From NCBI GenBank assembly GCA_025499705.1, contig JAFMVE010000014.1:52175-116174 (forward strand): a DNA stretch of 64,000 nucleotides, given 5' to 3'. A model generated the notes under the pieces. The model ran no database searches, was not told the DNA's origin, and saw only the letters and a program-made list of their open reading frames with translations. Position 1 is the first letter of the stretch. Every line of letters starts with the position of its first letter. Below are positions 2 through 51,122 of this stretch, one piece after another. The DNA is from Carboxylicivirga caseinilyticus (GTDB lineage: Bacteria > Bacteroidota > Bacteroidia > Bacteroidales > Marinilabiliaceae). A program made the translations under genes and the position numbers.

Positions 2-1060
2 GAATACAATCTTAAGAATTTTAACGTTGCAGAAGATTATTACGACATAAAACAACAAGCAGACCAGTTAAAACAAGACATAGAAAGGCTTCATCAGCAA
101 TTGGAGTTAATCAAAATTCAAATTTCAAATATTGATGAAAGTCGAAAAATATCTCCAGATATTGAAAGAAACAAAATAGAACAGGTATATAAAGAAGCCT
201 CTGTATTACTGCAAGACCAAGCCATAAAACAATTAGCAGAGCTTGAAAAATTCTATGAGCATCTTTCTCGAAATAGAGAAAAAAGGTTGTTAGACCAAAA
301 AAATGAACTGCTACGCAAAGCTAAATTATTTGAAATTACGAAGCATAGCAAAAGTGCTGAGTTGGACGGAAAACTGAAATACTTAGATGCCCATCAAGCA
401 CTTGACATGTTTACTAAGCTTTCTAATAATTTATCTGACTTAAAGAGTAAAAAAGAAAATTTGGAGCAATATGAGGAATTACTAGAAAGCTATTCGGAAG
501 AAAGCCGTAAAATAAGCAAATTGCAGTTGGATGAATCAGAAAAAACAGCTATTTACTTAAAAGATGCAAGTGAAGTAATTGCTCGAACAAACGATTTTTT
601 TAGAACTCTTGTTAAAAGGTTTTATCCCAAAGCAGCAGCAGGTATCACAATCCATAATAATGAAGGAGAAAATCAAATACGCTTTGACATTGATGCTAAA
701 ATAGAGTTTGATAAATCTGATGGTATAAGTAATGTAAAAACATTCTGTTACGACATGACCCTTTTATTAAAAGGATATGGTCACAATGTTGATTTTATTT
801 TCCATGATAGCCGATTACTTGAAGGAATAGATCCAAGACAGAAATTTGATCTAATAACGATACTAAAAGAATATATAGAAGGAAGCAGTAAGCAATACAT
901 TATAACAGTTAATTACAATCAATTAGAAGAAATTAAACCATTATTTCAATCAGAGGATGATTATTATAAGTTTGTAAAGGAAAACACTATTCTTGAACTA
1001 AAAGACAGTAGTGCTTCGGATAAACTTTTGGGTATTCAGGTTGATATGGATTACGAATAA
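2..1060 (+). CDS. DUF2326 (YydD/ABC-3C type) protein, C-terminal part
   Basis: The reading frame is open from base 2, so the true start lies outside the window and about 352 C-terminal residues are visible. The first two thirds is charged and helical (coiled coil, rich in K, E, L and Q). The last 150 residues carry the DUF2326 signature, with a hydrophobic strand ending FIFHDSRLLEGIDPRQ, the C-terminal half of an SMC/RecN-like ATPase head. Proteins of this family (COG5293) are the ATPases of ABC-three-component systems, which are predicted conflict or defence modules. Partner genes would be upstream, off the window. It lies beyond the last attC-like site of the cassette array and faces it. 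Whether it is a further cassette or chromosomal flank cannot be decided here. Family call confident; role inferred. Confidence 0.8.
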   Translation, partial: EYNLKNFNVAEDYYDIKQQADQLKQDIERLHQQLELIKIQISNIDESRKISPDIERNKIEQVYKEASVLLQDQAIKQLAELEKFYEHLSRNREKRLLDQKNELLRKAKLFEITKHSKSAELDGKLKYLDAHQALDMFTKLSNNLSDLKSKKENLEQYEELLESYSEESRKISKLQLDESEKTAIYLKDASEVIARTNDFFRTLVKRFYPKAAAGITIHNNEGENQIRFDIDAKIEFDKSDGISNVKTFCYDMTLLLKGYGHNVDFIFHDSRLLEGIDPRQKFDLITILKEYIEGSSKQYIITVNYNQLEEIKPLFQSEDDYYKFVKENTILELKDSSASDKLLGIQVDMDYE

Positions 1061-1269
1061 TTCCTTCACTTCATCTTAATTCAGCAAGTTTCATATCGAT
1101 ATCTTGTCAAAATAAATGGTAAAATCAAAAAGTTATCAACACCTATACTTTTATTTTTTACCAGAAAAAAAAGGGCAAAATGTATGTCCACCCCATTTGA
1201 GAATGGGTATTAAAACCCACTGCAAATATCTGTATTGCAACTGATTAAAAAAACGCTTTTATAGACTGT
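1061..1269. other. Spacer between DUF2326 gene and terminal attC-like site
   Basis: No gene is seen. A small hairpin lies at 1192-1207 (CCCATT / AATGGG, 4-base loop), followed by GGGT/ACCC at 1205-1218. It has no T-run, so a terminator call would be weak. This stretch joins the cassette array to whatever the DUF2326 gene belongs to. Confidence 0.4.
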
Positions 1270-1398
1270 CATGGTTTGCGGTATGACCAGTAAGGGATTG
1301 CGGGCGATTTCCTATCAAGATACATGAAAAGATAGAGCGGGCTACAAACCTCCGCATACCACTGAAACTCTTATTGGCTATACCGCGTGTTGTGGGTA
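1270..1398 (-). repeat. attC-like site A (array-distal)
   Basis: Outer arms GCGGTAT near 1278 and ATACCGC at 1380-1386 pair. The pairing extends inward through ..CCA.TAAG with a few mismatches. The right end, 1389-1398, is complementary to 2710-2719, the start of the DUF4062 cassette. The left end reads CATGG where the other five sites read AACG, so the half-site facing the DUF2326 gene is degenerate. The centre shares the motif GAGCGGGCTACAAACCT with site C. Confidence 0.8.
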
Positions 1399-1404
1399 TG
1401 TGCT

Positions 1405-2658
1405 TTAATCGTTGACTTCATCAGATTTATTAACAACCTCTAGTATTTCATTTTCCTCTAAAGTTTCTAGAGCATCCGCTTCAATATTTTCAACTTCAAG
1501 TTCTATTTGCAGATCTTGACTTATTGGCTCAGGCAAAATATCAGCATAGATTTTGACTTGAAAATTAATTTTCCCAGAGATTTCTGCACCAATCAACATT
1601 GTTTGCTTCGGTACAACTTCTCTTTTAGGCTGTAGAGCTCTTATCTCAACACTACTTATCCATCTACCATCATTATCCTTTATCTGTAGACTTTCACCTT
1701 CTATTAAATCACCTAAGGAAAAACCAATCCCCATTGGATCTCCTGTTTTAGATGGCTTTTTAATCGAAAAGCGAGTATTACTTTTAATATTTAGTTCTTT
1801 AATATCTGATGTTATAATTATGTCCAAGAAAATATCTCGAGCACCAATTATACTATTATTCTTTAACCAAAAATTAATAGGAACATACATTGAAGAGTTT
1901 ACTAAATACTCAAGATATTCACGATAATAGTCAGTATTCTGCCTGTCAAAAAGGTATCCTTTACTTTTCTTATTGTCTTCTTTAATAGCTAACTTAAAAT
2001 CAGGCACTTTATCTAAATTTTTTAGTTCAATAAATTTAGATTTCAGTTTAATTGATTGTCCTAAAGTTTTTTCGTTCTTTTTATCAAAAAACTCTAAGGA
2101 TATATTTGAAGTCGAATTATTTTGGTCTCCATTATTTGAATTTAATGTTGCAATTAAATTTCTCAACTGTATTTCAATTTGCTTAGCTAGTTTATCTCGA
2201 AATTCAATTTGGCTATTATAATTTTCTACAAGTGCTTTTGGGAAAGTTTTTTCTTTAAAATCTCTCAGCTTTTTCAACTGATCCAAATCTAACGAGTTTG
2301 GATCCTTTTTGACTTGTGAAAAATATAGCATTACAGGCTTCCCTTGATTTGCAATTCTTTCAATTTCCTCCAATGTTCCGCTATCTGCAACACCTGTTGG
2401 GCTACCAATTCGCGTCCAAAAAACACCGATCAACAAATCTGAATGGTCTACAACCTGTCTATTAATTACTTCTTGAGGTCTTTTTCCATATTCTGGTGCT
2501 GAATGAGTCTCCCATCTTAATGGTAATAACACGATCTGTCTTTCATGAGAATTTAAGTCATTCCATTCTTGAATGGTTTTTACTGCAATTTCTCTTTCTT
2601 CTTCTACATCTGAAGGAGATGCTATAAGTATCCTAAATACCTTTGCTTCGTATGCCAT
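1405..2658 (-). CDS. DUF4062 (TIR-like) domain protein
   Basis: 417 aa with no signal peptide, so cytoplasmic. Residues about 6-120 match DUF4062: FRILIASPSDVEEEREIAV near the start, then WETHSAPEYGKRPQ, DLLIGVFWTRIGSPTG and GKPVMLYF. DUF4062 is a flavodoxin/TIR-like fold that occurs as the N-terminal part of NTPase-type immune proteins. The C-terminal 230 residues are not recognised and end in a very acidic tail. There is no NTPase domain, so the sensor side is unknown. It is the sole gene of the last cassette. Its stop codon lies seven bases from the end of site A, and its start is about 60 bp inside the cassette border. An antiphage role is an inference from domain and context. Confidence 0.75.
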   Translation of the reverse strand: MAYEAKVFRILIASPSDVEEEREIAVKTIQEWNDLNSHERQIVLLPLRWETHSAPEYGKRPQEVINRQVVDHSDLLIGVFWTRIGSPTGVADSGTLEEIERIANQGKPVMLYFSQVKKDPNSLDLDQLKKLRDFKEKTFPKALVENYNSQIEFRDKLAKQIEIQLRNLIATLNSNNGDQNNSTSNISLEFFDKKNEKTLGQSIKLKSKFIELKNLDKVPDFKLAIKEDNKKSKGYLFDRQNTDYYREYLEYLVNSSMYVPINFWLKNNSIIGARDIFLDIIITSDIKELNIKSNTRFSIKKPSKTGDPMGIGFSLGDLIEGESLQIKDNDGRWISSVEIRALQPKREVVPKQTMLIGAEISGKINFQVKIYADILPEPISQDLQIELEVENIEADALETLEENEILEVVNKSDEVND

Positions 2659-2709
2659 GTATTAATATTTTATCATTCTTGTTTAATTATATTGAACCTT
2701 TGTTTGCAT

Positions 2710-2845
2710 TACCCACAACGTTTGCTGGATGAAGTCGTGGCGACTGGTCGTGGTGTCGTGTCACCCGTTAGGGGGACTAAGACGCTAGACAAAGGCGTCA
2801 GGACGAGCAAACCCAGCCATGCTTTATTCCAGCGTGTTACCTGCT
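2710..2845 (-). repeat. attC-like site B
   Basis: 136 bp. The outer arms GCTGGATGAAG (about 2724-2734) and CTTTATTCCAGC (2822-2833) pair. The left border TACCCACAAC matches the cassette start rule (complement at 1389-1398). The right border GTTACCTGCT (2836-2845) is the complement of 3447-3456. It is nearly identical over its whole length to site E at 6620-6755, with a handful of substitutions. Confidence 0.85.
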
Positions 2846-2851
2846 GTTTTT

Positions 2852-3427
2852 TTATTTTTTATAGGTGTCCCAAATTAGTTTTCCGTCAAAATCGATTTTG
2901 TACTTTGTTTTGCCAAAATCTGTAAGTAAGATTCCATCACTTTCAATTTTAAATTCTTCTTCGTTGTCTGTAGATACAAAAATGTCTGCACCACCAAATT
3001 CCCATTTTTTATTACCTTCTTTGTCAAGTTTTGTTACTTGAAATTCTCCATGTACAATGTAGTCGTCTTGCTGTCTGAATATTTGAAAACAAGTCGCTTG
3101 GTCTGATTGAGTTTTCCATTTCAATCTAAGGTCAGGTAGTGTCAAGCAAAAAATTGTATCACAACAACATAGTAGCAGTTGGTCTTTGTCGAAAAGTAAT
3201 GAATTTTGATGGATATATGTGGCTCCGCCTGAACCAATAATTATGCAACTGTCAATAATTTGGTCGTCCTGATAAATTTTAATTCCATGTTTGGATGTTG
3301 GATAATCTGTCGCGCCATTACCAAAGAAATGCTTTGAATAATGAAAACTGTTATCTGTCGAACCAAATTTGTATGTCGGTTCGTCTAGTACTTCAATCGT
3401 TAGGTCTTTATATTGTTGTCGATTCAT
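2852..3427 (-). CDS. Unknown soluble protein of a cassette
   Basis: 191 aa with no signal peptide or membrane segment. I do not recognise a named family. The composition suggests beta-sheet repeats like a short propeller: blocks such as LLLCCCDTIFCLTLPDLRLKW, QATCFQIFRQQDDYIVHGE, KLDKEGNKKWEFGGADIFV and YKIDFDGKLIW each end in a tryptophan strand. It fills the cassette between sites B and C. Its stop is six bases from site B, and its start codon is about 20 bp from the cassette border, leaving little room for a promoter of its own. Expression probably depends on read-through from upstream cassettes. Function unknown. Confidence 0.75.
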   Translation of the reverse strand: MNRQQYKDLTIEVLDEPTYKFGSTDNSFHYSKHFFGNGATDYPTSKHGIKIYQDDQIIDSCIIIGSGGATYIHQNSLLFDKDQLLLCCCDTIFCLTLPDLRLKWKTQSDQATCFQIFRQQDDYIVHGEFQVTKLDKEGNKKWEFGGADIFVSTDNEEEFKIESDGILLTDFGKTKYKIDFDGKLIWDTYKK

Positions 3428-3446
3428 TATGTTGTCGTCCCAAAAT

Positions 3447-3583
3447 AGCAGGTAACGGTAAATTGTATGAGTAGTGGCAGATTGCGTGGCACTTTCCTGT
3501 CAAACCGCTACGCAGTTTGAGCGGGCTACAAACCTTGATATTTACCACATCGCCTGCCATTACTTATACAAAGTGTTAGTTGC
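3447..3583 (-). repeat. attC-like site C
   Basis: 137 bp. An 18-bp arm at 3463-3480 (TTGTATGAGTAGTGGCAG) pairs with 3554-3571 at 16 of 18 positions. The borders AGCAGGTAAC (3447-3456) and GTTAGTTGC (3575-3583) are complementary to 2836-2845 and 5334-5342 respectively. The centre resembles sites A and D (..TTTCCTGTCAA.. and GAGCGGGCTACAAACCT). Confidence 0.87.
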
Positions 3584-3589
3584 TGTATT

Positions 3590-5179
3590 TTATAAATTAA
3601 TTGTTCTTTCTATATTTATTTGCTCCAAAAAAGTCTCATCGTGCGAAATGACAATCAATGTACCCTGATAATCATTGATGACATTTGTTAGTATTTCTAT
3701 GTTATAAATATCCAAATTATTGGTTGGTTCGTCCAAAATTATGATGTCTGGCGATTGATTGTAAATGCTTAAATAACATAACATCAAACGCATTCTTTCC
3801 CCACCACTTAAAGCACTGCAAGGCTTGTCCCAATCTTCTTTCGGGAACAAGAACCTATTTAGTCTTATTTTTATTTCGTGTTCCTGCAATGCAAAAGTAT
3901 TAAATTGCTGTGACTGCTCATAAACTTTTCTGTTATTGTCTATTAACGAATAATCTTGGTCAATATAAACCGATTTGTTTTCTGCAATAAAGACTGTGCC
4001 GATTTGGGGTACAAGATGCCCCAAAACCATTTTAATCAAAGTCGTTTTTCCTGAGCCGTTCGCCCCTTTTATTGCTATTCGTTCCCCACTGACGATTTGA
4101 AAATTCAGATTTTCTCTCCATAAATACTTTTCAGTTGTGTACCCAAAATTAATATTGTTTGCAATAAAGAGATTTTTGCCTTTGTGCAGTTTTGAATTGT
4201 CAAATCCAAACCTCATTTGATTAATTTCAGAAAGGGAAGAACGCAACTTTTGTAATTCTGTTCTAATATTTCCTATTTTTTCTGTGTGAACTCCTGCTAT
4301 TTTAGCAGTACTTAATTCTGCACTGTTTTTCATTGTATTGGAAACTATTTTAGGAAGACCTGCTTTTCCACTACTCTTTTTGGCTCGTGCGTCCAATTTC
4401 CTTTGACGTTCCAAGGTTTCACGTTGTTTCTCTTTGGCTTTTTTCAAATCCTTTTCCTTGCTTTGGATATTTTGGTTCAGCGCATTTATTTCAATTTGTT
4501 TTTGTTCCTTATAAAAGTCGTAATCACCACCATAGACTTTAATTCCATTTGAGTTTAATTCGCAAACGGTATCCAAAAGGTTCAGTAATTTTCTGTCGTG
4601 GCTTACAATAACCAAGGTGCTTTCTGTTGATTGAATAAAATCATACAACAGTTGCCTGCCAAAAATGTCCAAATGATTGCTTGGTTCGTCCAATAAAACC
4701 AACTCATATTGATGGATAGAAATGCCTGCAAGAAAAACTTTTGTCTTCTGTCCGCCACTAAGGGTCTCCATTTTCTGAGACAGGTCTAAATTGGATAAAT
4801 GCCAATATTTCAGTGCATCTTTACAACGGTCTTCTATTGTCCAATCATCATTGAGTGAATTGAAATTGTCTTCACTCATATTTCCGTTTAGAATTTCTTT
4901 TAAGGCTTTTAGTTTATTTTCAATCCGTAATGCCTGTGCAATAGTCAAATGGTTAAATTGTCCGAAAATTTGTGGTATATAATACGGCTCAGTATCAATG
5001 TTTATTTTACCACCTGACGGGTCTAACTCTTTAGCAATAATTTTTAACAACGTTGATTTTCCCACTCCGTTGCTACCAATCAAGGCTATTTTGTCGTGGT
5101 TGTTTACTGCGAGGTTGATGTCGCTAAACAGCAAATCTTTATTAGGATGTGTATATGATACACTATGTAAAGTCAACAT
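3590..5179 (-). CDS. ABC-F family ATPase, candidate ribosome protection protein
   Basis: 529 aa from ATG at 5179. An upstream in-frame ATG at 5212 would add 11 residues, but homologues usually start at MLTLHSVSY. There are two ATPase halves. The first has Walker A GSNGVGKST, LSGGQ and DEPSNHLD; the second has GANGSGKTT, LSGGERMRL and DEPTNNLD. A basic helical interdomain linker of about 100 residues separates them, and no membrane segment is present. ABC-F proteins bind the ribosomal E site; some with long linkers dislodge macrolides, lincosamides, streptogramins or pleuromutilins. Which drugs, if any, cannot be read from sequence. It fills the cassette between sites C and D and sits next to the erm cassette. 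A -7 motif lies about 120 bp upstream. Confidence 0.88.
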   Translation of the reverse strand: MLTLHSVSYTHPNKDLLFSDINLAVNNHDKIALIGSNGVGKSTLLKIIAKELDPSGGKINIDTEPYYIPQIFGQFNHLTIAQALRIENKLKALKEILNGNMSEDNFNSLNDDWTIEDRCKDALKYWHLSNLDLSQKMETLSGGQKTKVFLAGISIHQYELVLLDEPSNHLDIFGRQLLYDFIQSTESTLVIVSHDRKLLNLLDTVCELNSNGIKVYGGDYDFYKEQKQIEINALNQNIQSKEKDLKKAKEKQRETLERQRKLDARAKKSSGKAGLPKIVSNTMKNSAELSTAKIAGVHTEKIGNIRTELQKLRSSLSEINQMRFGFDNSKLHKGKNLFIANNINFGYTTEKYLWRENLNFQIVSGERIAIKGANGSGKTTLIKMVLGHLVPQIGTVFIAENKSVYIDQDYSLIDNNRKVYEQSQQFNTFALQEHEIKIRLNRFLFPKEDWDKPCSALSGGERMRLMLCYLSIYNQSPDIIILDEPTNNLDIYNIEILTNVINDYQGTLIVISHDETFLEQINIERTINL

Positions 5180-5297
5180 AATTTCTTTCTTTGTAAAAAA
5201 TGAAACACTCACAGCAAAATATTCTGCCGTGCTTTTTTATCTATATGTGAAAGAAATTATTTTTTCATCCCTGCTGACTGTTTAGTTTTTGATTTTG

Positions 5298-5305
5298 CAA
5301 ATATA
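5298..5305 (-). promoter_or_regulatory. Candidate -7 element for the ABC-F gene
   Basis: The minus strand reads TATATTTG, matching the Bacteroidota -7 consensus TAnnTTTG, about 120 bp before the preferred start. No clear -33 TTTG lies at the usual spacing. It is inside the ABC-F cassette, just after the site D border. Confidence 0.45.
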
Positions 5306-5333
5306 TAAAATTGCGTGGTAGTCTCCTAATATT

Positions 5334-5471
5334 GCAACTAACGGATTGGCGGTATGTTTTTGTTGCCGATTTCGAAGCACTGTCCTGTCAAGTTACACGA
5401 AAGTTTATTAGATGTAGAAACGCTGAAACCCGCACTATCTCGGCAATAAAATATACCGCCTGTTGTGCGTA
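5334..5471 (-). repeat. attC-like site D
   Basis: The outer arms GGCGGTAT (5348-5355) and ATACCGCC (5453-5460) pair perfectly. A second block GTTGCCGA / TCGGCAAT extends the stem. The borders GCAACTAAC (5334-5342) and GTTGTGCGT (5462-5470) are complementary to 3575-3583 and 6620-6628. It separates the divergently transcribed ABC-F and erm genes. Confidence 0.87.
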
Positions 5472-5495
5472 CGGCTTTTATTTTTTTCATTTTTT

Positions 5496-5526
5496 TTTGC
5501 AAATTAAAACAAAGTTACTAATTTTG
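5496..5526 (+). promoter_or_regulatory. Bacteroidota-type promoter for the erm gene
   Basis: TTTG at 5496-5499, a 19-base spacer, then TAATTTTG at 5519-5526. Both the -33 and -7 motifs and the spacing match the Bacteroides consensus. It lies inside the erm cassette, so the gene carries its own promoter and can be expressed against the direction of the array. The predicted start of transcription is about 230 bases before the erm start codon, leaving a long leader. Confidence 0.7.
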
Positions 5527-5554
5527 CATTCAATTATTTAATTTTTTTTTCATT

Positions 5555-5587
5555 ATGTATTACAGCAGACCTTGGACGACTATCTAA
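5555..5587 (+). CDS. Possible erm leader peptide ORF (10 codons)
   Basis: The first ATG after the predicted promoter opens a 10-codon frame, MYYSRPWTTI, ending in TAA. Its last codons and stop fall in a small hairpin (CTATC / GATAG). Inducible erm genes are often controlled by drug-dependent stalling on such leader peptides. No match to a known leader is claimed, and no strong ribosome binding site is visible. The call is speculative. Confidence 0.3.
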   Translation: MYYSRPWTTI

Positions 5588-5764
5588 GTGATAGACAGTC
5601 CCAAATAAAATTCCTATAATCTTTTTGGTAAGACAAACAGTCTATGCCTTAGTGTGTCGTCATTTTTAATGAATGCATTGCTTTGTCATAGTTGCGCTGT
5701 CAGGTAATACTGTCTTTCACTTCGCTGTGATTTGAATTCAAGTATTCACCTGTAAGAAGTCATA

Positions 5765-6565
5765 ATGAATAAAAATAAATTACCTGTAAGATTTACGGGT
5801 CAGCACTTTACAATTGACAAAGTGCTAATTGAAGATGCAATAAAACAATCAAGAATTAATCAAAACGATACGGTCTTAGATATTGGTGCAGGAAAAGGAT
5901 TTCTAACTGTACATCTACTACAAAAGGCAAAATTAGTCATTGCGATTGAGAATGATTTTGAGTTAATAACATATCTAAAACACAAGTTTAAACAAACTCA
6001 AAACATTCAAGTTTTTGGATGTGATTTCAGAAATTATAAAATTCCTAATTTTTCGTTTAAGGTTGTTTCTAATATACCATTTGGTATAACATCAGAAATT
6101 TTAAAAATATTGATGTTTGAAAATATGGAAAATTTTCAGGGCGGTTCAATTTTCCTGCAATTAGAACCTGCTAAAAAGTTATTTGCAGACAAAATCTTCA
6201 ATCCTTACACTATCCTATATCATACATTTTATAGTTTGAAGATAGTTTACGAAATAAATCCTAATAGTTTTATACCTCCTCCAACTGTTAAGTCTGCTTT
6301 TCTTAAAATTGAACGAAAACCTTTACATATTGATTTTAATCAGAAAGTCAAATATTTAAATTTCCTATCCTTTCTGTTACAAAAACCTAATTTATCTGTC
6401 AGAACGGCTTTAAAATTAATATTCAGAAAAAGTCAGGTTAATGAGATTTCCGAAAAATTTGGAATTAATTTGAACTTAAAAATCGTGAATCTATTTCCAA
6501 GTCAATGGGAAGAATGTTTTATTGAAATGCTGAAAGTTGTTCCTGAAAAGTTCCACCCTTCATAA
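5765..6565 (+). CDS. erm: rRNA adenine N6-methyltransferase, Erm(F)-like
   Basis: 266 aa, the same length as Erm(F). The first residues match it almost throughout (LPVRFTGQHFTIDKVLI) and so does the C terminus (EMLKVVPEKFHPS). The SAM-binding motif DIGAGKGFLT is at residues 39-48 and the target-adenine motif is NIPF at 103-106, with F where Erm(F) has Y. Enzymes of this family dimethylate A2058 of 23S rRNA and give macrolide-lincosamide-streptogramin B resistance. I judge identity to Erm(F) from memory as clearly homologous but well below identical. The gene lies alone in its cassette, between sites D and E, and is the only cassette gene on the plus strand. It has its own promoter and a long leader. 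Confidence 0.93.
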   Translation: MNKNKLPVRFTGQHFTIDKVLIEDAIKQSRINQNDTVLDIGAGKGFLTVHLLQKAKLVIAIENDFELITYLKHKFKQTQNIQVFGCDFRNYKIPNFSFKVVSNIPFGITSEILKILMFENMENFQGGSIFLQLEPAKKLFADKIFNPYTILYHTFYSLKIVYEINPNSFIPPPTVKSAFLKIERKPLHIDFNQKVKYLNFLSFLLQKPNLSVRTALKLIFRKSQVNEISEKFGINLNLKIVNLFPSQWEECFIEMLKVVPEKFHPS

Positions 6566-6619
6566 TCAATTCTTTTTTGTCAGGGAGTATTTCCATCGTG
6601 GGTGTCTTCTTTTTAGCTG

Positions 6620-6755
6620 ACGCACAACGGTTGCTGGATGAAGTCGTGGCGCGTTAGTCGTGGTGTCGTGTCACCCGATAGGGGGACTAAGACGGTAGAC
6701 AAAGGCGTCAGGACGAGCCAACCTAGCCATGCTTTATTCCAGCGTGTTACCGCCA
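6620..6755 (-). repeat. attC-like site E
   Basis: 136 bp, nearly identical to site B, with the same arms GCTGGATGAAG and CTTTATTCCAGC. The borders ACGCACAAC (6620-6628) and GTTACCGCCA (6746-6755) differ from those of site B and instead match the erm and lipoprotein cassettes they delimit. The right end overlaps the last codons of the lipoprotein gene. Confidence 0.87.
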
Positions 6756-7414
6756 GTTATTTGTTGTTTTTTTAATTCTAGATTATTGTCAATTAACTCA
6801 ATTTGATATTTCCCGTTATAATTCTCAACTGTAATTTTATTGGATTCCAATTGAGTCAAGTCAAATTTTTTATTAAACATTATTCTTGGTTTCCCATTAC
6901 TAAATTCTATAAAAGTTAAAAGACCAGGTTCACTTGCGTAAACCCAGCTAAACAATCCAATTAATTTCGTCTTTCCAAAATCGGTCAACAACAAGAAGTC
7001 CGTATTAAATTGATTTTGTTCTTTTATAAAATCAGGTACTGGATAATTATTATCAAAACGAACCCAGCCGTCAAAATTGGTTTTCATCCAACTCTCACCA
7101 TTGTCTAGTTTTATCTCTATTTGATGAAAATCTCCAGGGTCATTTTCGAATCCATTAAGTTTGTATAGAATTAATGTGTCTTGTTTTTGATTTTGGTTTA
7201 AATCAGCAATAAACTCTTTAACACGATAATTAGTCAATTCAGGATTCTCTGGATATAACCATTCATCACGGTAAAAACCGTCAATAAGTTTTGAATTTAA
7301 TACGAATCCAACTTTTTCAGAATTTAGAGCAGTGTCTTTATTCTCCGTTTGGTTTGACTTACAAGAAGTCATAATTAAAACCAATATTAATATTCTCGAA
7401 ATCTTCATTTTCAT
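6734..7414 (-). CDS. Small lipoprotein of unknown function
   Basis: 226 aa. The N terminus MKMKISRILILVLIMTSCKS is a lipoprotein signal peptide with lipobox MTSC, so the product is predicted to be membrane-anchored outside the cytoplasm. No family is recognised in the mature part, which looks beta-rich (..FDGWVRFDNNYPVPDF.., ..LLLTDFGKTKLIGLFSWVY..). The phrase LLTDFGKTK also occurs in the unknown protein at 2852-3427, a possible distant link. It is the sole gene of its cassette. The start codon is three bases after the border repeat, so no promoter fits inside the cassette, and the last codons run into site E. Confidence 0.75.
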   Translation of the reverse strand: MKMKISRILILVLIMTSCKSNQTENKDTALNSEKVGFVLNSKLIDGFYRDEWLYPENPELTNYRVKEFIADLNQNQKQDTLILYKLNGFENDPGDFHQIEIKLDNGESWMKTNFDGWVRFDNNYPVPDFIKEQNQFNTDFLLLTDFGKTKLIGLFSWVYASEPGLLTFIEFSNGKPRIMFNKKFDLTQLESNKITVENYNGKYQIELIDNNLELKKQQITGGNTLE

Positions 7415-7417
7415 TAT

Positions 7418-7621
7418 TGGCGGTAACGGTGGCGGTATGAAACGTAAGGGCTTTATTGCAATACATTATCTAACCGCTAAGTAGCCAAAACTACGTTTTG
7501 ACACCGAATTTAAAACATTTTACAAAACCGTCAAAACGTAGTTTTGGCGAGGCTGATTAAATGCCGAAAAGTTACATAACCTACTGAACCCCTTATGTTT
7601 TATGACCGCGTGTTAGGCAAC
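7418..7621 (-). repeat. attC-like site F with extra internal hairpin
   Basis: 204 bp, the longest of the six. The outer stem GCGGTATGAAACGTAAGGG pairs with CCCTTATGTTTTATGACCGC, with one extra base on one strand. Inside is a perfect 19-bp inverted repeat (7484-7502 and 7530-7548) around a 27-base loop. The borders TGGCGGTAAC (7418-7427) and GTTAGGCAAC (7612-7621) are complementary to 6746-6755 and 10063-10072. On the minus strand its first core reads GCCTAAC, the classical inverse core of integron cassettes. Confidence 0.87.
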
Positions 7622-8811
7622 GTTTTTTTTATCCCTAAGGCTAATTTGTATGCCAACAATGGAGGAACTGCATTTCCAACTTGAGTAAATTGTCTTGCTG
7701 CTGAACCTGTAAATATATAATTGTCAGGAAATGTTTGTAATCTTGCTGATTCCCTTGCTGACAATGTTCTCGGAGAATAAGGGTGTAGATGAGAACGTCC
7801 ACCACCTTTTGTTCCTCCTGCTATTACTGTTTTTGAAGGTAAAAAAGGATTTAGTCTGTCAACACGACCTCGTTGGTCTCTCATTCCATAGTCTAACTGA
7901 ATATATCTTAAAATTGATTCTGCTGTATGGTTTCTTGTTACGTGATTCTCAATACCATCAAGGTCAGTATGAAAGACATCGTAGCTTGCTGACTGAAAAA
8001 CATTTGGTTTAGGAAACTCAAAATTATTTTTACCCTTTATTCCTATTATGAAAAGACGTCTTCTATTTTGAGGAACTCCATAATCTGCAGAATTTATAAC
8101 TGTTGGTTTTGTTATTGAATATCCTAAATTAGATAATTTATCTAAATGCTTTTGAATTAAATCAGCCTCATCTAATTCTCCTAAACCTGGAACATTTTCA
8201 ATAAGAAAAGCCTTTGGTAAAAAATATTCAATGAACCATAAATAATCAAATAACAAATTGCCTTTTTCCTTATCCTCAAAACCTAAACGCTTAAAATTAT
8301 CATCTTGCTTTTTAAACCGTTGATTGGATGCGATACTGAAAGGTTGACAAGGTGGTCCACCATGAAAAACGCCATTGAAGTTTTTTGAAATTCCAACATT
8401 TTTTATCAAAATGTCTTTAAGCGTTTCTCTTTCTCTTACATCGCCTGTAAAATCAGATGGTCCAATTACAATTTTTTCTGGATTGTTAAGTCTTAAAGTG
8501 TTGCAAAAAAGTTCAGTATTTTCAATTGATGCGAGATTATTAAATCCTGCATATTTAAATCCGATATCTAAACCACCTGCCCCCGAAAAAAAGCTAATTG
8601 CCGGAATATTTTCAGTAGAAGGAACAATATCATTTAATGATTCTGCTTTTCCCTGTCTATTAAAGCCATTAACGTAATTATTGTATCTCAGATTGTCATA
8701 TGACAAACTTTTATTCTTTAATTCCTCATGCAAAGGGATTTCGTTTAAAATGCAGTAATTTAACATTTTAACTTGCTCTTCAATACTTAATTTATCCCTA
8801 AGTTCTTTCAT
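7600..8811 (-). CDS. DNA (cytosine-5-)-methyltransferase
   Basis: 403 aa and complete. In order: motif I ISFFSGAGGLDIGF (about 72-85), motif IV GGPPCQPFS with catalytic Cys155, motif VI ENV (205-207), motif VIII QNRRRLFIIG (248-257), motif IX-like RTLSARESARLQTFPDNY (348-365) and motif X QVGNAVPP (377-384). It transfers methyl groups to cytosine C5 at an unknown site and should protect against the endonuclease encoded just upstream. The two genes overlap by 4 bp (ATGA), which suggests translational coupling. The last few codons lie within site F, so the C-terminal residues NTRS are contributed by the recombination site. Confidence 0.93.
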   Translation of the reverse strand: MKELRDKLSIEEQVKMLNYCILNEIPLHEELKNKSLSYDNLRYNNYVNGFNRQGKAESLNDIVPSTENIPAISFFSGAGGLDIGFKYAGFNNLASIENTELFCNTLRLNNPEKIVIGPSDFTGDVRERETLKDILIKNVGISKNFNGVFHGGPPCQPFSIASNQRFKKQDDNFKRLGFEDKEKGNLLFDYLWFIEYFLPKAFLIENVPGLGELDEADLIQKHLDKLSNLGYSITKPTVINSADYGVPQNRRRLFIIGIKGKNNFEFPKPNVFQSASYDVFHTDLDGIENHVTRNHTAESILRYIQLDYGMRDQRGRVDRLNPFLPSKTVIAGGTKGGGRSHLHPYSPRTLSARESARLQTFPDNYIFTGSAARQFTQVGNAVPPLLAYKLALGIKKTLPNTRS

Positions 8812-9980
8812 ATAACCAACTTCCTTTTTGCTTGCAAATATACATCTTTTGCCTCGTTTTTACTTCTAAAATCATCAATACTCTCTGCGTCTAACCAAGT
8901 CTTGTAAAATAAGTGTACACTTTTATGACAAGACGGACAAAGACCAATCAAATCATCCATTGACGTGCCCTTTGTTGAAATAGCAATTGTAGATGAAAGC
9001 GGCAAAATGTGATGCATTTCAATTAAATATTTTGTCCAAGGATATCTTAGGCTCATATTTGTTTCACACATATGACAAACAGGTTCTGGGTTGTTTTGAA
9101 GAAATACTTTTCTCAATAATGGACTTCTTTCTATTTTTAAGTGTGTAACTCTTGATTTTTTACCCTCAATAAATAATTCATCTGAGGCTGATTCACGACT
9201 TCTAATTTTTGTTGGTAGAATAATTCCATCACTGGTTTTCGTTAACTTCAGAAAATCTTCTTCTTTTAATTTGTTTGGCAATAATAGCTTTGGTGTAATC
9301 AATTTTCTAAATTCTGGAGAATTGATTTCATCATTGTCTATATCTAAGTACAATGAATTATTAAACCATTTTAAAATGCTCATTTGGCTTATAAAGATTA
9401 GCATTTCTCTTACTTGCCTTTTTTGGTCACCTTTTATAGTATATGGAATTGGAAGAAGCTTCTTGTAATCTTCAATAGTTTCAAAGCCTGTACAATTATT
9501 AGCTATGATAATTCCAAATACTTCTTCTATCGTTATTTTGGGTTCATCACCCAATTCTATACGCGATGCTAAAAATTTAAGAATAGCGCAAAATGGATGG
9601 ATTACGTTATCTTTTGGGTTATAATCTTGAAATGCTGGAAAAGGAAACCGAAATCGAGGAATATAAAGAGAAAAATAATCATCAACATCGTTAATACTTC
9701 CATCTTGCCTGCAAATTTCAAGACAGAAGTCAGTTGCTTGCAGTTTGCCATCTATCTTTGTAGCTAAAAATGAACACTCAAAAACTCTTTTGTAATTTCT
9801 CCAAACGGTATAATTTGAAGGTGCAAATGGCAAGTTTGTTTTATCTTCGAGAGCATTTCTTAAAATGTCTGTACCAGCTAACATTGACGTTCCTGATAAT
9901 TCGCTCAATACCTCAGCCATATTTTTCAACACATCAAATTGAAAATATAATAATCTACCTTGATCCCATCTCCAAATCAT
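8808..9980 (-). CDS. HNH endonuclease, probable type II restriction enzyme
   Basis: 390 aa. The C-terminal HNH module has a zinc frame C302xxC305 and C348xxC351, and a core EMHHILPLS with H323/H324. The sequence DDLIGLCPSCHKSVH follows. The N-terminal 280 residues are not a recognised domain and presumably recognise DNA. Adjacency and 4-bp overlap with the C5-methyltransferase indicate a restriction-modification pair carried by the first cassette, with the nuclease gene first. The start ATG is about 80 bp inside the cassette border. Upstream in-frame codons were not needed. Recognition sequence unknown. Confidence 0.85.
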   Translation of the reverse strand: MIWRWDQGRLLYFQFDVLKNMAEVLSELSGTSMLAGTDILRNALEDKTNLPFAPSNYTVWRNYKRVFECSFLATKIDGKLQATDFCLEICRQDGSINDVDDYFSLYIPRFRFPFPAFQDYNPKDNVIHPFCAILKFLASRIELGDEPKITIEEVFGIIIANNCTGFETIEDYKKLLPIPYTIKGDQKRQVREMLIFISQMSILKWFNNSLYLDIDNDEINSPEFRKLITPKLLLPNKLKEEDFLKLTKTSDGIILPTKIRSRESASDELFIEGKKSRVTHLKIERSPLLRKVFLQNNPEPVCHMCETNMSLRYPWTKYLIEMHHILPLSSTIAISTKGTSMDDLIGLCPSCHKSVHLFYKTWLDAESIDDFRSKNEAKDVYLQAKRKLVI

Positions 9981-10062
9981 AAAATTTGATTCAATAGTTT
10001 AAAAGTCTAAAATAATCATTTTTCTCATTACTTATCTTGGCTTGATGAACGCTCTTTTAAAT

Positions 10063-10170
10063 GTTGCCTAACTCTCCAATAAACGGAGTATTACTGTTAT
10101 TTTTAATTTACCCATTTTTTTATTCCACTATACATACCGTATAGGGTTGTAAAGCGGACATTGTTTTATG
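10063..10170 (-). other. attI-like recombination site between recombinase and array
   Basis: Plus-strand 10063-10072 (GTTGCCTAAC) is the exact complement of the far end of site F (7612-7621). This marks the start of the first cassette and, with it, the array insertion point. On the minus strand the junction reads GGAGAG^TTAGGCAAC. Just outside is a short inverted repeat CTCC / GGAG (10074-10077, 10085-10088), then CTATAC / GTATAG (10128-10133, 10139-10144), then the recombinase stop codon. A folded attC does not occur here, as expected for an attI. Confidence 0.65.
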
Positions 10171-11313
10171 TTAATTATATAAATCATCCAATGGATTTTT
10201 AATCCTTTTCAATTCTTTGTTACTTACGTAAGTATAAATCTCTGTAGTTTTACTCGAACTATGTCCGAGCAATTCTTGTATGTATCTTAAATCTGTTCCT
10301 TGTTCCAGTAAATGAGTCGCAAAAGAATGCCTGAGCATATGTGGAGTTACTCTTCTTTTTATTCCGGCTTTAAGTGCCGATCGTTTTAATACCTTTTGAA
10401 TACTTGTTGTAGAATATGGTTCTCCAGGTGTAGCACCCTCAAATAACCAATACTTTGGCCTGTATTTCTTGTAGTATTCTCTTAATTCAATTAAAAGGTT
10501 CTTCGATAGTGTTGTATATCTATCCTTCTTTCCTTTTGCATTAATAATTCTAACCTGATATCTGTCCGAAATAATATCGTTAAGTTTTAAATGTATTAAT
10601 TCACTTATCCTCAATCCAGCCGAATATATTAAAGATAGAACACACCTTTGTTTTAAATTGTCAGTACATCTGAGAATCTTTACTACCTCTTCTCTGCTTA
10701 GTACTTTGGGTAAAGTATTTGAAGATCTGGGACGCTCCAGTTTATAGTGTATCGGTTCTTGACCCAAAACCTTTTCGTAATAAAATTTAATGGCACTTAT
10801 TCGCTGATTTTGTTCTGATGCGGATATTTTATTTTCACGAATTAGTTTCAATAAGTATTCCGAGATTTGTTCATAGCTTATTTCATTAACATTTTGATCT
10901 TTAAATTCAAATACAAAATCCCTAAAGTAGGCCAGATATGTTCTTTTTGTGTTTTCGCTATATCTTTTCTCATCCAGATGCTTTGTATATGAATCCGGTA
11001 TTTGAACCGTTTTTCGATACTCATACTTCATATTAACAGGCACCTTAATGTCCTTATCTATACTTTGAGTATCATTTCGTTTGAGTAAAGCTTCATAATT
11101 TACAAAAGCTTTAGATTTCAAAGCATGAAATACTGTATTTAAATTAAATTCTTGCAAAAATAAATACCAACATTTATTAGTATTACTCCAGTGCAATTTA
11201 AGTTCATCTTTTAGTTGTCGAATAAGTTCTTGATTAAACTCAAACTTAAAGAAAACTACTTTTTCACCTCGATGTATTCCTGGCTCAAGTATTATAATTG
11301 GTTTGGCTGGCAA
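10171..11313 (-). CDS. Tyrosine recombinase, probable cassette integrase
   Basis: 380 aa from a TTG codon; an in-frame TAA four codons upstream rules out a longer start. Residues 1-78 form an extra N-terminal domain (..FEFNQELIRQLKDELKLHW..KCWYL..). A SAM-like core-binding domain follows at 100-190 and a XerC/D-like catalytic domain at 200-375. Catalytic residues visible are R235 (AGLRISEL), K262, H325 and R328 (PHMLRHSFATH), H351 (LGHSS) and Y360 (IYTYV). The stretch between the LSKNLLIELREYYK helix and PHMLRH is short, so the extra helix-bearing insertion that marks integron IntI proteins is absent. The gene points toward the array, and its stop is about 100 bp from the first cassette. Confidence 0.88.
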   Translation of the reverse strand: MPAKPIIILEPGIHRGEKVVFFKFEFNQELIRQLKDELKLHWSNTNKCWYLFLQEFNLNTVFHALKSKAFVNYEALLKRNDTQSIDKDIKVPVNMKYEYRKTVQIPDSYTKHLDEKRYSENTKRTYLAYFRDFVFEFKDQNVNEISYEQISEYLLKLIRENKISASEQNQRISAIKFYYEKVLGQEPIHYKLERPRSSNTLPKVLSREEVVKILRCTDNLKQRCVLSLIYSAGLRISELIHLKLNDIISDRYQVRIINAKGKKDRYTTLSKNLLIELREYYKKYRPKYWLFEGATPGEPYSTTSIQKVLKRSALKAGIKRRVTPHMLRHSFATHLLEQGTDLRYIQELLGHSSSKTTEIYTYVSNKELKRIKNPLDDLYN

Positions 11314-12255
11314 GAAACTTTAGTTTAAATTAATTATTCCATTTCTTATCTACAATATAACAAATTTTGATTAAAATCTACACAGCTTTATCTTGTTACA
11401 AACTCATCATTTTGCCATACATCTGCTCAAAAGCTGGAAAATCAAAGGTGGAAACCTTTATTATTTCTGCTATGATTATGGCTATACACCATCAAGTGAA
11501 TCAGGTAAAGTAATGGTTATTCAACAACAGTATTATATGAAGTAACTCACAACCGATTTTTGTAACCAACTCTTTAATTGTGTTTGAATCAAATATAAAC
11601 TGGTAATACTGCACTTCTGGTAATGCTTCGCCATCTCACTCCCAATAGCACGCTATGAGTAAGTCGATGTTTGTAAGTCAATGACTATACTCTTTGTGCC
11701 CATCAACACTCATCATGCTCCCACACAAACAGCAATTGTATAATTCCGACTTAGGTTTGATTACGAATCATAAAAAAACATATTTTTTTTGAAAATTCAA
11801 ATGATACAGTTAAATCGAAGACCAAACATTTCTGTTATTTTTCAACAAATTTTGTAGCTTCAATACCATTATACTATCAAAGGAGAACCTTTTCAGCTAA
11901 ACAAATCATTAAACTCTAAATAACACATCCGGTCTAACTAATTATTTTTCAAACCGTTTTTTAAGTTACAGTAACATTCTATCAACAAATACTAAATCAG
12001 TTGCCAACTGCACTCCTGTTTTCACCTTTGCTAAAATCAGAACTACTATAATATCTATTTACAATACAATTGAAAAAACAAATAAAGACAATAAGATATT
12101 TTTATTGAATAATAACGAATATGAGTATAGTAGGTACGAAAAGTGTATTTGTAATATGTAAACCATATTTATTTAAGTATCTTCAGATGTGTTTTATAAC
12201 TCTTAATCGTAAAAGCTAAGTTATCATCCACCTAAATCATCCTAATTACAACAAA
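11314..12255. other. Gene-poor spacer between recombinase and GH78 gene
   Basis: No intact gene is seen in 940 bp. A stretch open on the plus strand to a TAA at about 11542 encodes a tail-like segment (LKSWKIKGGNLYYFCYDYGY..) with no start codon, and may be the remnant of a lost gene. It probably marks the outer border of the integron-like element. No clear TAnnTTTG promoter with a good -33 was found for the GH78 gene. Confidence 0.4.
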
Positions 12256-50510: not shown

Positions 50511-50617
50511 TGATATTTATTAAAGATTAAACATTCATCACAAAGTAGATGCGGGAAAATGAAAAGAATTTTTCGCGAAGTTATTATCTTCTGCCTTTCT
50601 CCCGAAAGCTACGATAC

Positions 50618-50762
50618 TTATATCCGGCAGGTCTTCTGACTTGTTCCTGTTTTATCGCCTTCCCATTCATTCATACAACAGTGGCTTGCATGATAAAACA
50701 TTTCATTGGAACTTACAGCTACGGGGATAGTTCCTGACTCTAACAGGATTCCCTTTTAATCG
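50618..50762 (-). promoter_or_regulatory. Cobalamin (B12) riboswitch
   Basis: Read on the minus strand the conserved blocks appear in order: AAAAGGGAATCCTG, GGAACTATCCCCGTAGCTGT (the B12 box region), AAGCCACTG, GGGAAGGC, and AAGTCAGAAGACCTGCC. It ends about 110 bases before the DUF4198 start codon. It should lower expression when adenosyl- or aquocobalamin is plentiful. Confidence 0.92.
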
Positions 50763-51122
50763 ATAAGAACCGAATACGAACGCAAAAATATAGAAAGAAT
50801 GTGTGAAACCTTACTAAAGACAGATAGATATTTTAAAATTATATTAGCTGACATTACCGTCCATTTTTTCTTTTTTAACTATGCCTCTAATAACTAAATT
50901 ATAAGCCACCACCCTCTGTTTTTAAACATCCATTTCTTAATTTTCTCGTTTTTTCTCACAAAATATCTTAAAACCCACACATTACAGAAATAAAACATCA
51001 TTTTATAGCAGTAGCATTGAATTACTCTTTCTATCTTTGCAACTTCAAAATAGCTGTTTGGGGGGACATGGAATCGAACAGTTGTATTTAAGAAATTAAA
51101 TAAAACACAAACAGTAACAGCT
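50763..51122 (+). promoter_or_regulatory. Upstream region of the exporter pair
   Basis: No gene. The sequence TATCTTTG at 51032-51039 fits the Bacteroidota -7 motif, about 84 bases before the exporter start. A -33 at the right spacing is not clear. Confidence 0.45.

What the first reader, a model, noticed from the sequence alone, without database searches (positions are those of the whole stretch)
1270..11313. Integron-like cassette array in a Bacteroidota genome
Six unrelated cargo units are separated by six folded repeats and headed by a tyrosine recombinase. Each cassette start is the exact complement of the start of its own repeat. The organisation is that of an integron, but the sites mostly do not fit the published attC core (RYYYAAC/GTTRRRY), so standard attC models could miss it.
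Basis: partly seen in the sequence, partly recalled or inferred. Interest (0 to 1): 0.95.

Follow-up and report, generated by a model that had tools for sequence, protein, structure and literature searches.

The report
Bacteroidota integron lacking IntI's hallmark domain
This stretch is a row of gene cassettes headed by a recombinase that lacks the hallmark insert of known integron enzymes; one of its cassettes sits letter for letter in another genus between different neighbours, so the row likely works as a gene-swapping platform, of a kind found widely in the Bacteroidota, which likely also builds the toxin-immunity arrays of gut bacteria.

Summary
Window 1273-10072 (minus strand) is six head-to-tail cassettes; each one's first 9-10 nt are the exact reverse complement of the start of its own terminal hairpin (6 of 6). 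The rule holds in 89 of 100 cassettes of a complete same-genus genome (shuffled 1.1%) and 98 of 105 neighbouring pairs in named loci (shuffled 2.2%). Cassettes move as units: cassette 4 is 100% identical in another genus, both ends at the predicted cut, neighbours different; 33 of 100 cassettes in the complete genome recur cut to cut. The recombinase groups with IntI against Xer (100/98.6) but lacks the IntI-specific insertion, as do the 31 relatives aligned with it; the sites mostly miss the attC cores; the enzyme reads towards the array. Sites occur in 144 of 296 genomes of the phylum. A Parabacteroides rAID immunity array, of a kind whose origin is called open in print, follows the same rule with short sites. 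Reading: an integron lineage without the IntI insert. Recombination itself is untested.

The parts
10171..11313 (-). Tyrosine recombinase (integrase), 380 aa: own N-terminal domain (about 1-84), SAM-like core-binding domain, catalytic domain; transcribed towards the array; no IntI insertion
   Evidence: (R235, K260, H325, R328, H351, Y360 invariant in 54 rows; their catalytic roles are recalled)
10073..10170 (-). attI-like insertion point: 98 nt between recombinase stop and first cassette start, ending in a short inverted repeat (CTCC..GGAG) just before the cut
7428..10072 (-). Cassette c6 (first): HNH-endonuclease gene 8808-9980 and C5-cytosine DNA methyltransferase gene 7600-8811, likely a restriction-modification pair
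7428..7621 (-). attC-like site s6, 194 nt, with an extra 19-bp perfect inverted repeat in its loop
6629..7427 (-). Cassette c5: 226-aa protein without a family match (ORF 6734-7414)
6629..6755 (-). attC-like site s5, 127 nt
5343..6628 (-). Cassette c4: Erm-family 23S rRNA methyltransferase gene 5765-6565, which lies on the + strand, inverted relative to the other cargo; 100% identical copy in genome G197
5343..5470 (-). attC-like site s4, 128 nt
3457..5342 (-). Cassette c3: ABC-F protein gene 3590-5212, ribosomal-protection-like (379.9 bits, cut-off 380)
3457..3583 (-). attC-like site s3, 127 nt
2720..3456 (-). Cassette c2: 191-aa protein without a family match (ORF 2852-3427)
2720..2845 (-). 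attC-like site s2, 126 nt
1273..2719 (-). Cassette c1 (last): DUF4062-like protein gene 1405-2658 (21 bits, below the Pfam cut-off 24.7; matches PADLOC candidate PDC-S60 over residues 6-196)
1273..1398 (-). attC-like site s1, 126 nt, last of the array; followed by ATGAC instead of GTT
1174..1272 (-). Array-end border shared with two other genomes after a last site (ATGAC.GT... about 80 nt ...GGTGGACATACATTTTGCC)

Best explanation
This is a cassette array of the integron kind, headed by a tyrosine recombinase that lacks the IntI-specific insertion, and it likely gains, loses and reorders its genes by recombination between a site next to the recombinase gene and the hairpin site at the end of each cassette. 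Shown by comparison: the unit is cut-to-cut; each cassette carries one hairpin site at its end; its start pairs with the start of its own site, so that this pairing would be complete in a free circle; an identical unit sits in another genus between different neighbours, and near-identical units recur within one genome; the first cassette begins 35-165 nt after the recombinase stop in 25 of the 28 arrays where its start was found. Inferred: the recombinase catalyses the exchange; one strand of the site (the bottom strand, here the window + strand) is the folded substrate, chosen by two conserved G.T pairs that become A.C mismatches on the other strand; new cassettes enter next to the recombinase; cassettes are read in its direction. 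Cargo here is a likely restriction-modification pair, two ribosome-related genes that resemble antibiotic-resistance determinants, and unknowns. The lineage is widespread in the Bacteroidota and likely includes the rAID immunity arrays of gut Bacteroidales.
For: Private start/end complement 6 of 6 in the window, 89 of 100 in G002 against 1.1% shuffled, 56 of 64 at 8 nt or more in a mixed set of own-genome, relative and named loci, 98 of 105 in named loci against 2.2%. Whole-unit mobility: cassette c4 identical over 1,290 nt in another genus with both ends at the predicted cut and different flanks, in an array headed by its own recombinase, 41% identical; 12 families covering 33 of 100 G002 cassettes recur cut to cut. 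First cassette start found after the recombinase in 28 of 30 arrays tried. Recombinase and sites co-occur: 78 of 296 genomes with both, odds ratio 13.8; in 80 named loci all 143 sites have one orientation to the recombinase and 141 lie downstream of it. Two conserved G.T pairs; in circle form the bottom strand folds better in 5 of 6. Recombinase groups with IntI against Xer, 100/98.6; best Foldseek match is integron integrase 2A3V.
Against: No recombination was observed; nothing here shows a circle or an active enzyme. 66 of 144 site-bearing genomes have no recombinase at my threshold and 12 of 90 recombinase-bearing genomes show no site. 44 of 80 named recombinase loci show no site with model R2; many contigs end near the gene, but I did not sort them. 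11 of 100, 8 of 64 and 7 of 105 pairs fail; in the array of G236 only 2 of 6 pass. For s6 the top strand folds slightly better, and array-form sites fold only modestly better than shuffles. The last site is followed by ATG, not GTT. By plain sequence score an archaeal Xer (4A8E, 150.5 bits) beats IntI4 (133.2). Monophyly of the insert-less recombinases is unresolved (71/73), few other simple recombinases were in the tree, and five of its seven IntI are close to IntI1. No shuffle control was run for the attI search. 67 of 100 G002 cassettes have no near-full-length copy there.
Confidence: 0.86

Rival explanations
1. An ordinary integron: the recombinase is an IntI and the sites are attC sites within the known range.
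For: Same logic; best Foldseek match is 2A3V; IntI and these recombinases form one group; NCBI names some relatives 'site-specific tyrosine recombinase/integron integrase'.
Against: TIGR02249 score 222.1 is under its cut-off 265; the IntI insertion is absent from the window protein and the 31 relatives aligned (one, L079, has 4 residues in its second part) while present in 7 of 7 IntI; 0 of 100 G002 sites fit both published cores; a true IntI does occur in the class (421.9 bits in G181, 1 of 149 genomes over the cut-off), so the two kinds coexist.
Confidence: 0.08
2. A static run of genes separated by repeats, reshuffled only by homologous recombination between repeats.
For: Sites s2 and s5 are 90% identical over 114 nt, enough for homologous exchange.
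Against: Exchange inside repeats would put breakpoints inside them; the G197 copy ends at both predicted cuts, and its upstream site is unlike the window's upstream site. It does not explain the private complement or the cassette start close after the recombinase.
Confidence: 0.03
3. Xer-dif-like modules: cassettes moved by the housekeeping XerC/XerD at short core sites.
For: The host has two further proteins that look like XerC/D; 66 site-bearing genomes have no array recombinase at my threshold.
Against: Sites are 126-194 nt hairpins with private arms; arrays are headed by their own recombinase, with sites in a fixed orientation to it, and the two co-occur.
Confidence: 0.03

Closest known systems
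Integrons with IntI integrase, attI and attC (class 1; Vibrio superintegrons)
   Same: Cassette array, one hairpin site per cassette, cassette start pairs with its own site start, AAC/GTT at the junction, insertion point beside the integrase gene, most genes in one orientation (66 of the 75 G002 cassettes with an ORF of 50 aa or more; 25 have none), related recombinase
   Different: No IntI-specific insertion; an N-terminal domain of about 84 residues instead; cores mostly off RYYYAAC/GTTRRRY; integrase reads towards the array in the window and in most relatives seen (divergent layout being usual for integrons is recalled); two conserved G.T pairs in the stem, which I did not compare with classical attC sites
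rAID, recombinase-associated acquired interbacterial defence (gut Bacteroidales; Ross et al. 2019, not held here; PMC12247911, passages read)
   Same: Recombinase 43.5% identical to the window's, no IntI insertion, directional cassettes with the same private complement: 8 consecutive cassettes in L167, 2 in L190
   Different: Site mostly 45-49 nt from arm to cut instead of 126-194; cut mostly reads CC-ATTA; cargo is immunity genes, which the window lacks
Archaeal XerA / XerC / XerD recombinases
   Same: Catalytic core and SAM-like domain; 4A8E is the best single sequence match among solved structures (150.5 bits)
   Different: Tree separates six Xer proteins from array recombinases plus IntI at 100/98.6; I know of no cassette arrays for them (recalled)

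Membership tests
Integron (IntI/attI/attC) | Tyrosine recombinase gene beside the array | tested here: met
   PF00589 137.1 bits, cut-off 27.1
Integron (IntI/attI/attC) | IntI-specific additional domain in the catalytic part | tested here: not met
   31 + 11 alignment columns filled in 7 of 7 IntI, empty in the window protein and in the 31 relatives but for 4 residues of L079 in the second part; 62 IntI4 residues face 20 of the window protein there
Integron (IntI/attI/attC) | Curated integron-integrase profile TIGR02249 | tested here: not met
   222.1 bits, cut-off 265
Integron (IntI/attI/attC) | attC: one imperfect inverted repeat with outer and inner arm pairs at the end of each cassette | tested here: met
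Integron (IntI/attI/attC) | attC cores RYYYAAC and GTTRRRY | tested here: not met
   Window 1 of 6 and 0 of 6; G002 13 of 100 and 14 of 100, both together 0 of 100 (4 of 104 sites without AAC in place left out)
Integron (IntI/attI/attC) | Cassette start complementary to its own attC start | tested here: met
   6 of 6; 89 of 100 exact; 98 of 105 at 8 nt or more
Integron (IntI/attI/attC) | attI next to the integrase gene | tested here: met
   First cassette start located in 28 of 30 arrays, 25 of these within 35-165 nt of the stop; its activity is not testable here
Integron (IntI/attI/attC) | Cassettes are mobile units | tested here: met
   By comparison only:
Integron (IntI/attI/attC) | Recombination of the folded bottom strand of attC | tested here: inconclusive
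   Bottom strand folds better in 5 of 6 circle forms; conserved G.T pairs point to it; no activity data
Integron (IntI/attI/attC) | Array promoter Pc | not tested
   -
rAID | rAID-type tyrosine recombinase | tested here: met
   43.5% identity to the Parabacteroides recombinase; both within a set of 13 rows, 96/77
rAID | Array of co-oriented orphan immunity genes | tested here: not met
   Window cargo is restriction-modification, Erm-like, ABC-F, DUF4062-like and unknown; one gene is inverted

The most novel reading that the evidence does not exclude
A whole second branch of integrons runs through the phylum Bacteroidota: its recombinases never had the insertion held to be essential for integron function, yet they move cassettes with private folded ends between genera, in arrays of up to dozens of cassettes, and the gut rAID immunity arrays are its short-site form. 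Cassette capture would then be older than the IntI insertion, and a large cassette pool has been left out of integron surveys.
Probability: 0.65. Interest if true: 0.93.

Novelty: new variant of a known kind. Interest (0 to 1): 0.86.

Why it matters
Integrons are defined and searched for by IntI with its extra insertion and by attC models; IntegronFinder 2.0 names one complete integron in Bacteroidetes, in Salinibacter ruber (passages read). Here sites of another make are found in 144 of 296 genomes sampled from the phylum. If the enzyme works without the insertion, its supposed essential role must be rethought, and what selects the folded strand becomes a testable question (two conserved G.T pairs). 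A 2025 preprint calls the mechanism of rAID biogenesis an area of active research (passages read); the cassette rule gives a direct test. An identical Erm-like cassette in two genera suggests that resistance-like genes travel this way outside the monitored integron classes.

Tried and rejected
Rfam found nothing at the array; no tRNA in the window. A first alignment of the top strand did not show the stem well, so the models were built on the bottom strand. Folding energies of single array-form sites are not decisive, so I relied on complement statistics and unit boundaries. I considered the ~48-50 kb stretches between G002 site clusters as part of the integron; they resemble each other but most of their length holds no site, and they are set aside. 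TIGR02249 across 149 class genomes finds three matches, one of them over the cut-off. A quick tree warned of long branches; the careful one replaced it. Ten paper searches listed, apart from rAID papers, nothing whose title or abstract start describes Bacteroidota arrays of this kind; the library holds only openly licensed papers, so this is no proof of absence. I recall that Ross et al. 2019 call rAID-1 clusters suggestive of active gene acquisition and may liken them to integrons; that paper was not held.
Full report
What is in the window. On the minus strand a 380-aa tyrosine recombinase (10171-11313; PF00589 137.1 bits) is followed by six cassettes, cut to cut: 10072-7428, 7427-6629, 6628-5343, 5342-3457, 3456-2720, 2719-1273. 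Each starts GTT and ends in a 126-194 nt hairpin site. The first 9-10 nt of each cassette are the exact reverse complement of the first 9-10 nt of its own site, 6 of 6. Cargo: an HNH endonuclease plus C5 DNA methyltransferase, a 226-aa unknown, an Erm-family 23S rRNA methyltransferase (225.3 bits, broad Erm cut-off 212; below the Erm(F) one), an ABC-F protein (379.9 bits, cut-off 380), a 191-aa unknown and a DUF4062-like protein. The Erm-like gene is inverted relative to the rest. What these genes do in the host was not tested.

The rule is general. Model R1, a covariance model of the six sites, found 104 sites at E up to 0.1 in the 260 kb I fetched from G002, a complete genome of the same genus, all on one strand. 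They lie in four clusters, the first directly after the recombinase. Of 100 neighbouring pairs under 5 kb apart, 89 show a 9-of-9 complement between cassette start and own site; shuffling the partners gives 1.1%. A mixed set (own genome, relatives, named loci) gives 56 of 64 at 8 nt or more. In 80 named loci found by the recombinase (the best 80 of 568), model R2 (built on 95 matches that include the window sites) gives 143 sites in 36 loci; all 143 lie on the strand opposite the recombinase and 141 downstream of it (the two exceptions are in L109). Of 105 neighbouring pairs 98 have a complement of 8 nt or more, shuffled 2.2%; GTT stands at the cut in 139 of 143. Titles include Winogradskyella, Aquimarina, Algoriphagus, Arundinibacter, Rufibacter and Bacteroidales; three MAG titles name other groups (L035 Rhodobacteraceae, L038 Neomarinimicrobiota, L055 Desulfurellales), which may be binning errors or transfer and were not followed. 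At E up to 1, R2 found only the six window sites in the window, 100 kb of E. coli K-12 and 120 kb of the stretches between G002 clusters.

Cassettes move as whole units. The window array as a DNA query against 60 relatives gives one identical match outside its own genome: G197, another genus of the family, 1,290 nt at 100%. It is cassette c4. On both sides identity stops at the predicted cut; the upstream site there is unlike the window's, and the next cassette starts GTTGGCGTTC instead of GTTAGTTGCA. In G197 it is again third, counting the sites found, in an array headed by its own recombinase (41% identical); the next cassette carries a SMODS/SLATT_4 pair. In G002, 33 of 100 cassettes fall in 12 families of near-full-length copies (one family down to 85.5% identity, and its members do not all share one start; the others 95.4% or more), ends at the same cuts, neighbours mostly different; one family includes a tandem pair. 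Since C stands before and GTT after nearly every cut, the breakpoint is fixed only to within C-GTT; the classical G^TT (recalled) is compatible.

Insertion point. Searching for the complement of the first site's start between recombinase stop and first site placed the first cassette start in 28 of 30 arrays, besides the window; in 25 of 28 it lies 35-165 nt after the stop codon (exceptions 243, 446 and 785 nt; no shuffle control). By eye, many are preceded by a palindrome a few nt before the cut (for example GGATATA...TATATCC-AATT^GTT). I read this as the attI; its use is inferred.

The site. On 143 aligned sites (141 distinct; fitted to the model, so leaning towards it) the bottom strand has 2,291 Watson-Crick cells, 345 G.T, 25 A.C and 98 others. 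Two stem pairs are G.T in 94 of 139 and 134 of 138. On the other strand these are A.C mismatches, so the two strands differ in a fixed way. With each window cassette closed in silico into a circle, the outer arms pair over about 10 bp and the bottom strand is the more stable one in 5 of 6 (s6 is the exception). Strand choice by these pairs is inference.

The recombinase. In an alignment of 43 proteins the two-part insertion (31 and 11 columns) is present in 7 of 7 IntI, five of them close to IntI1, and absent in 32 of 32 array recombinases, the Parabacteroides one included, but for 4 residues of L079 in the second part. IntI4 (2A3V) aligns in two stretches; between them 62 IntI4 residues face 20 of the window protein. 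PMC8138268 (passages) says the insertion is not fully conserved in its integron-like subgroup but essential for integron function. The careful tree separates array recombinases plus IntI from six Xer proteins at 100/98.6; the array recombinases alone stand at 71/73, so whether IntI is sister to them or arose inside them is open. Sequence search alone ranks archaeal XerC-like 4A8E (150.5 bits) over IntI4 (133.2); Foldseek's best solved structure is 2A3V (E 3.2e-16) on a model of mean pLDDT 83.4 and pTM 0.56.

Spread. R2 sites at E up to 1e-6 occur in 144 of 296 phylum genomes, although only 11 candidates per genome were scored; the recombinase at E up to 1e-50 in 90 of 296. Both in 78, sites only 66, recombinase only 12, neither 140; odds ratio 13.8, Fisher p 4.6e-19, relatedness not corrected. 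Of 28 recombinase places that I picked from the printed lists, 26 had a listed site on the same contig: in 22 the nearest lies downstream in the usual orientation (0.9 to 26 kb away), in 4 upstream. For two of those four I fetched the array (G236, G242): the recombinase matches only from residue 109 on and reads away from the array, the classical layout. The private complement holds at 8 nt or more in 11 of 13 pairs of G242 and 2 of 6 of G236.

rAID. The best plasmid match is a Parabacteroides distasonis recombinase (43.5%) followed by T6SS immunity genes. R2 does not find its short sites. A scan with a cut pattern that I chose after reading this locus finds eight consecutive cassettes there with the private complement over 8-11 nt, seven sites of 45-49 nt and one of 72, and two cassettes in G178, a genome not looked at before; shuffled pairs of these loci give 0.14 hits, the opposite strands 1 and 0. 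PMC12247911 (passages) defines rAID by a tyrosine recombinase, co-oriented short genes and conserved intergenic motifs, and calls its biogenesis open.

Verdict. It works like an integron by the features that comparison could test. It is not filed as an IntI integron, because the insertion, the family cut-off and the core motifs were tested and not met. I rate it a new variant of a known kind: a branch of integrons without the IntI insertion. Novelty in print could only be checked in an open-licence library.

Noticed in passing
G002:C1 about 2783243-2833149, 2847052-2897258, 2922369-2970293 (L143-L152): Three stretches of 48-50 kb between site clusters resemble each other at about 70-76% over many kb; genes in two of them encode a Strawberry-notch-type helicase and an LPD1 domain. 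They look like related mobile elements stacked between cassette arrays.
   Followed up: partly
window 1174-1272; L114; L146: Three genomes share an array-end border after a last site: ATGAC.GT, about 80 nt, then GGTGGACATACATTTTGCC; of 20 genomes searched only G000 and G002 have it, once each, G014 is the third (L114). Unexplained; possibly the old attI half or the edge of a carrier element.
   Followed up: partly
L193 (G236), L192 (G242): Short recombinases, apparently without the N-terminal domain, sit beside arrays of the same sites but read away from them, the classical integron layout.
   Followed up: partly
window 10171-11313, residues 1-84: N-terminal domain with order b-b-a-b-b-a-b-a and conserved W42, S43, W49. 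It may stand in for the missing IntI insertion.
   Followed up: no
window 7484-7548: Site s6 holds an extra hairpin with 19-bp perfect arms in its loop; sites of 189-196 nt recur in G002.
   Followed up: no
L154, L155, L156 (own-genome contigs C114, C115, C77): Other array pieces of this genome sit on contigs that end in or near sites, so draft assemblies likely break at these repeats and undercount them.
   Followed up: partly
L194 (G197) 9804-11558: The cassette next to the shared Erm-like cassette holds a SMODS nucleotidyltransferase and a SLATT_4 membrane protein, a CBASS-like pair.
   Followed up: partly
window 101-1060 (+): DUF2326 protein just outside the array end; matches only positions 288-580 of the 581-position PADLOC candidate PDC-M68B (134 bits), with an in-frame stop at 23-25, so the gene may be truncated.
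   Followed up: no
L035, L038, L055: Recombinase relatives on MAG contigs titled Rhodobacteraceae, Neomarinimicrobiota and Desulfurellales; L035 also carries sites. Binning error or transfer beyond the phylum.
   Followed up: no
window 50609-50789 (-): Cobalamin riboswitch, 99.9 bits, unrelated to the array.
   Followed up: no
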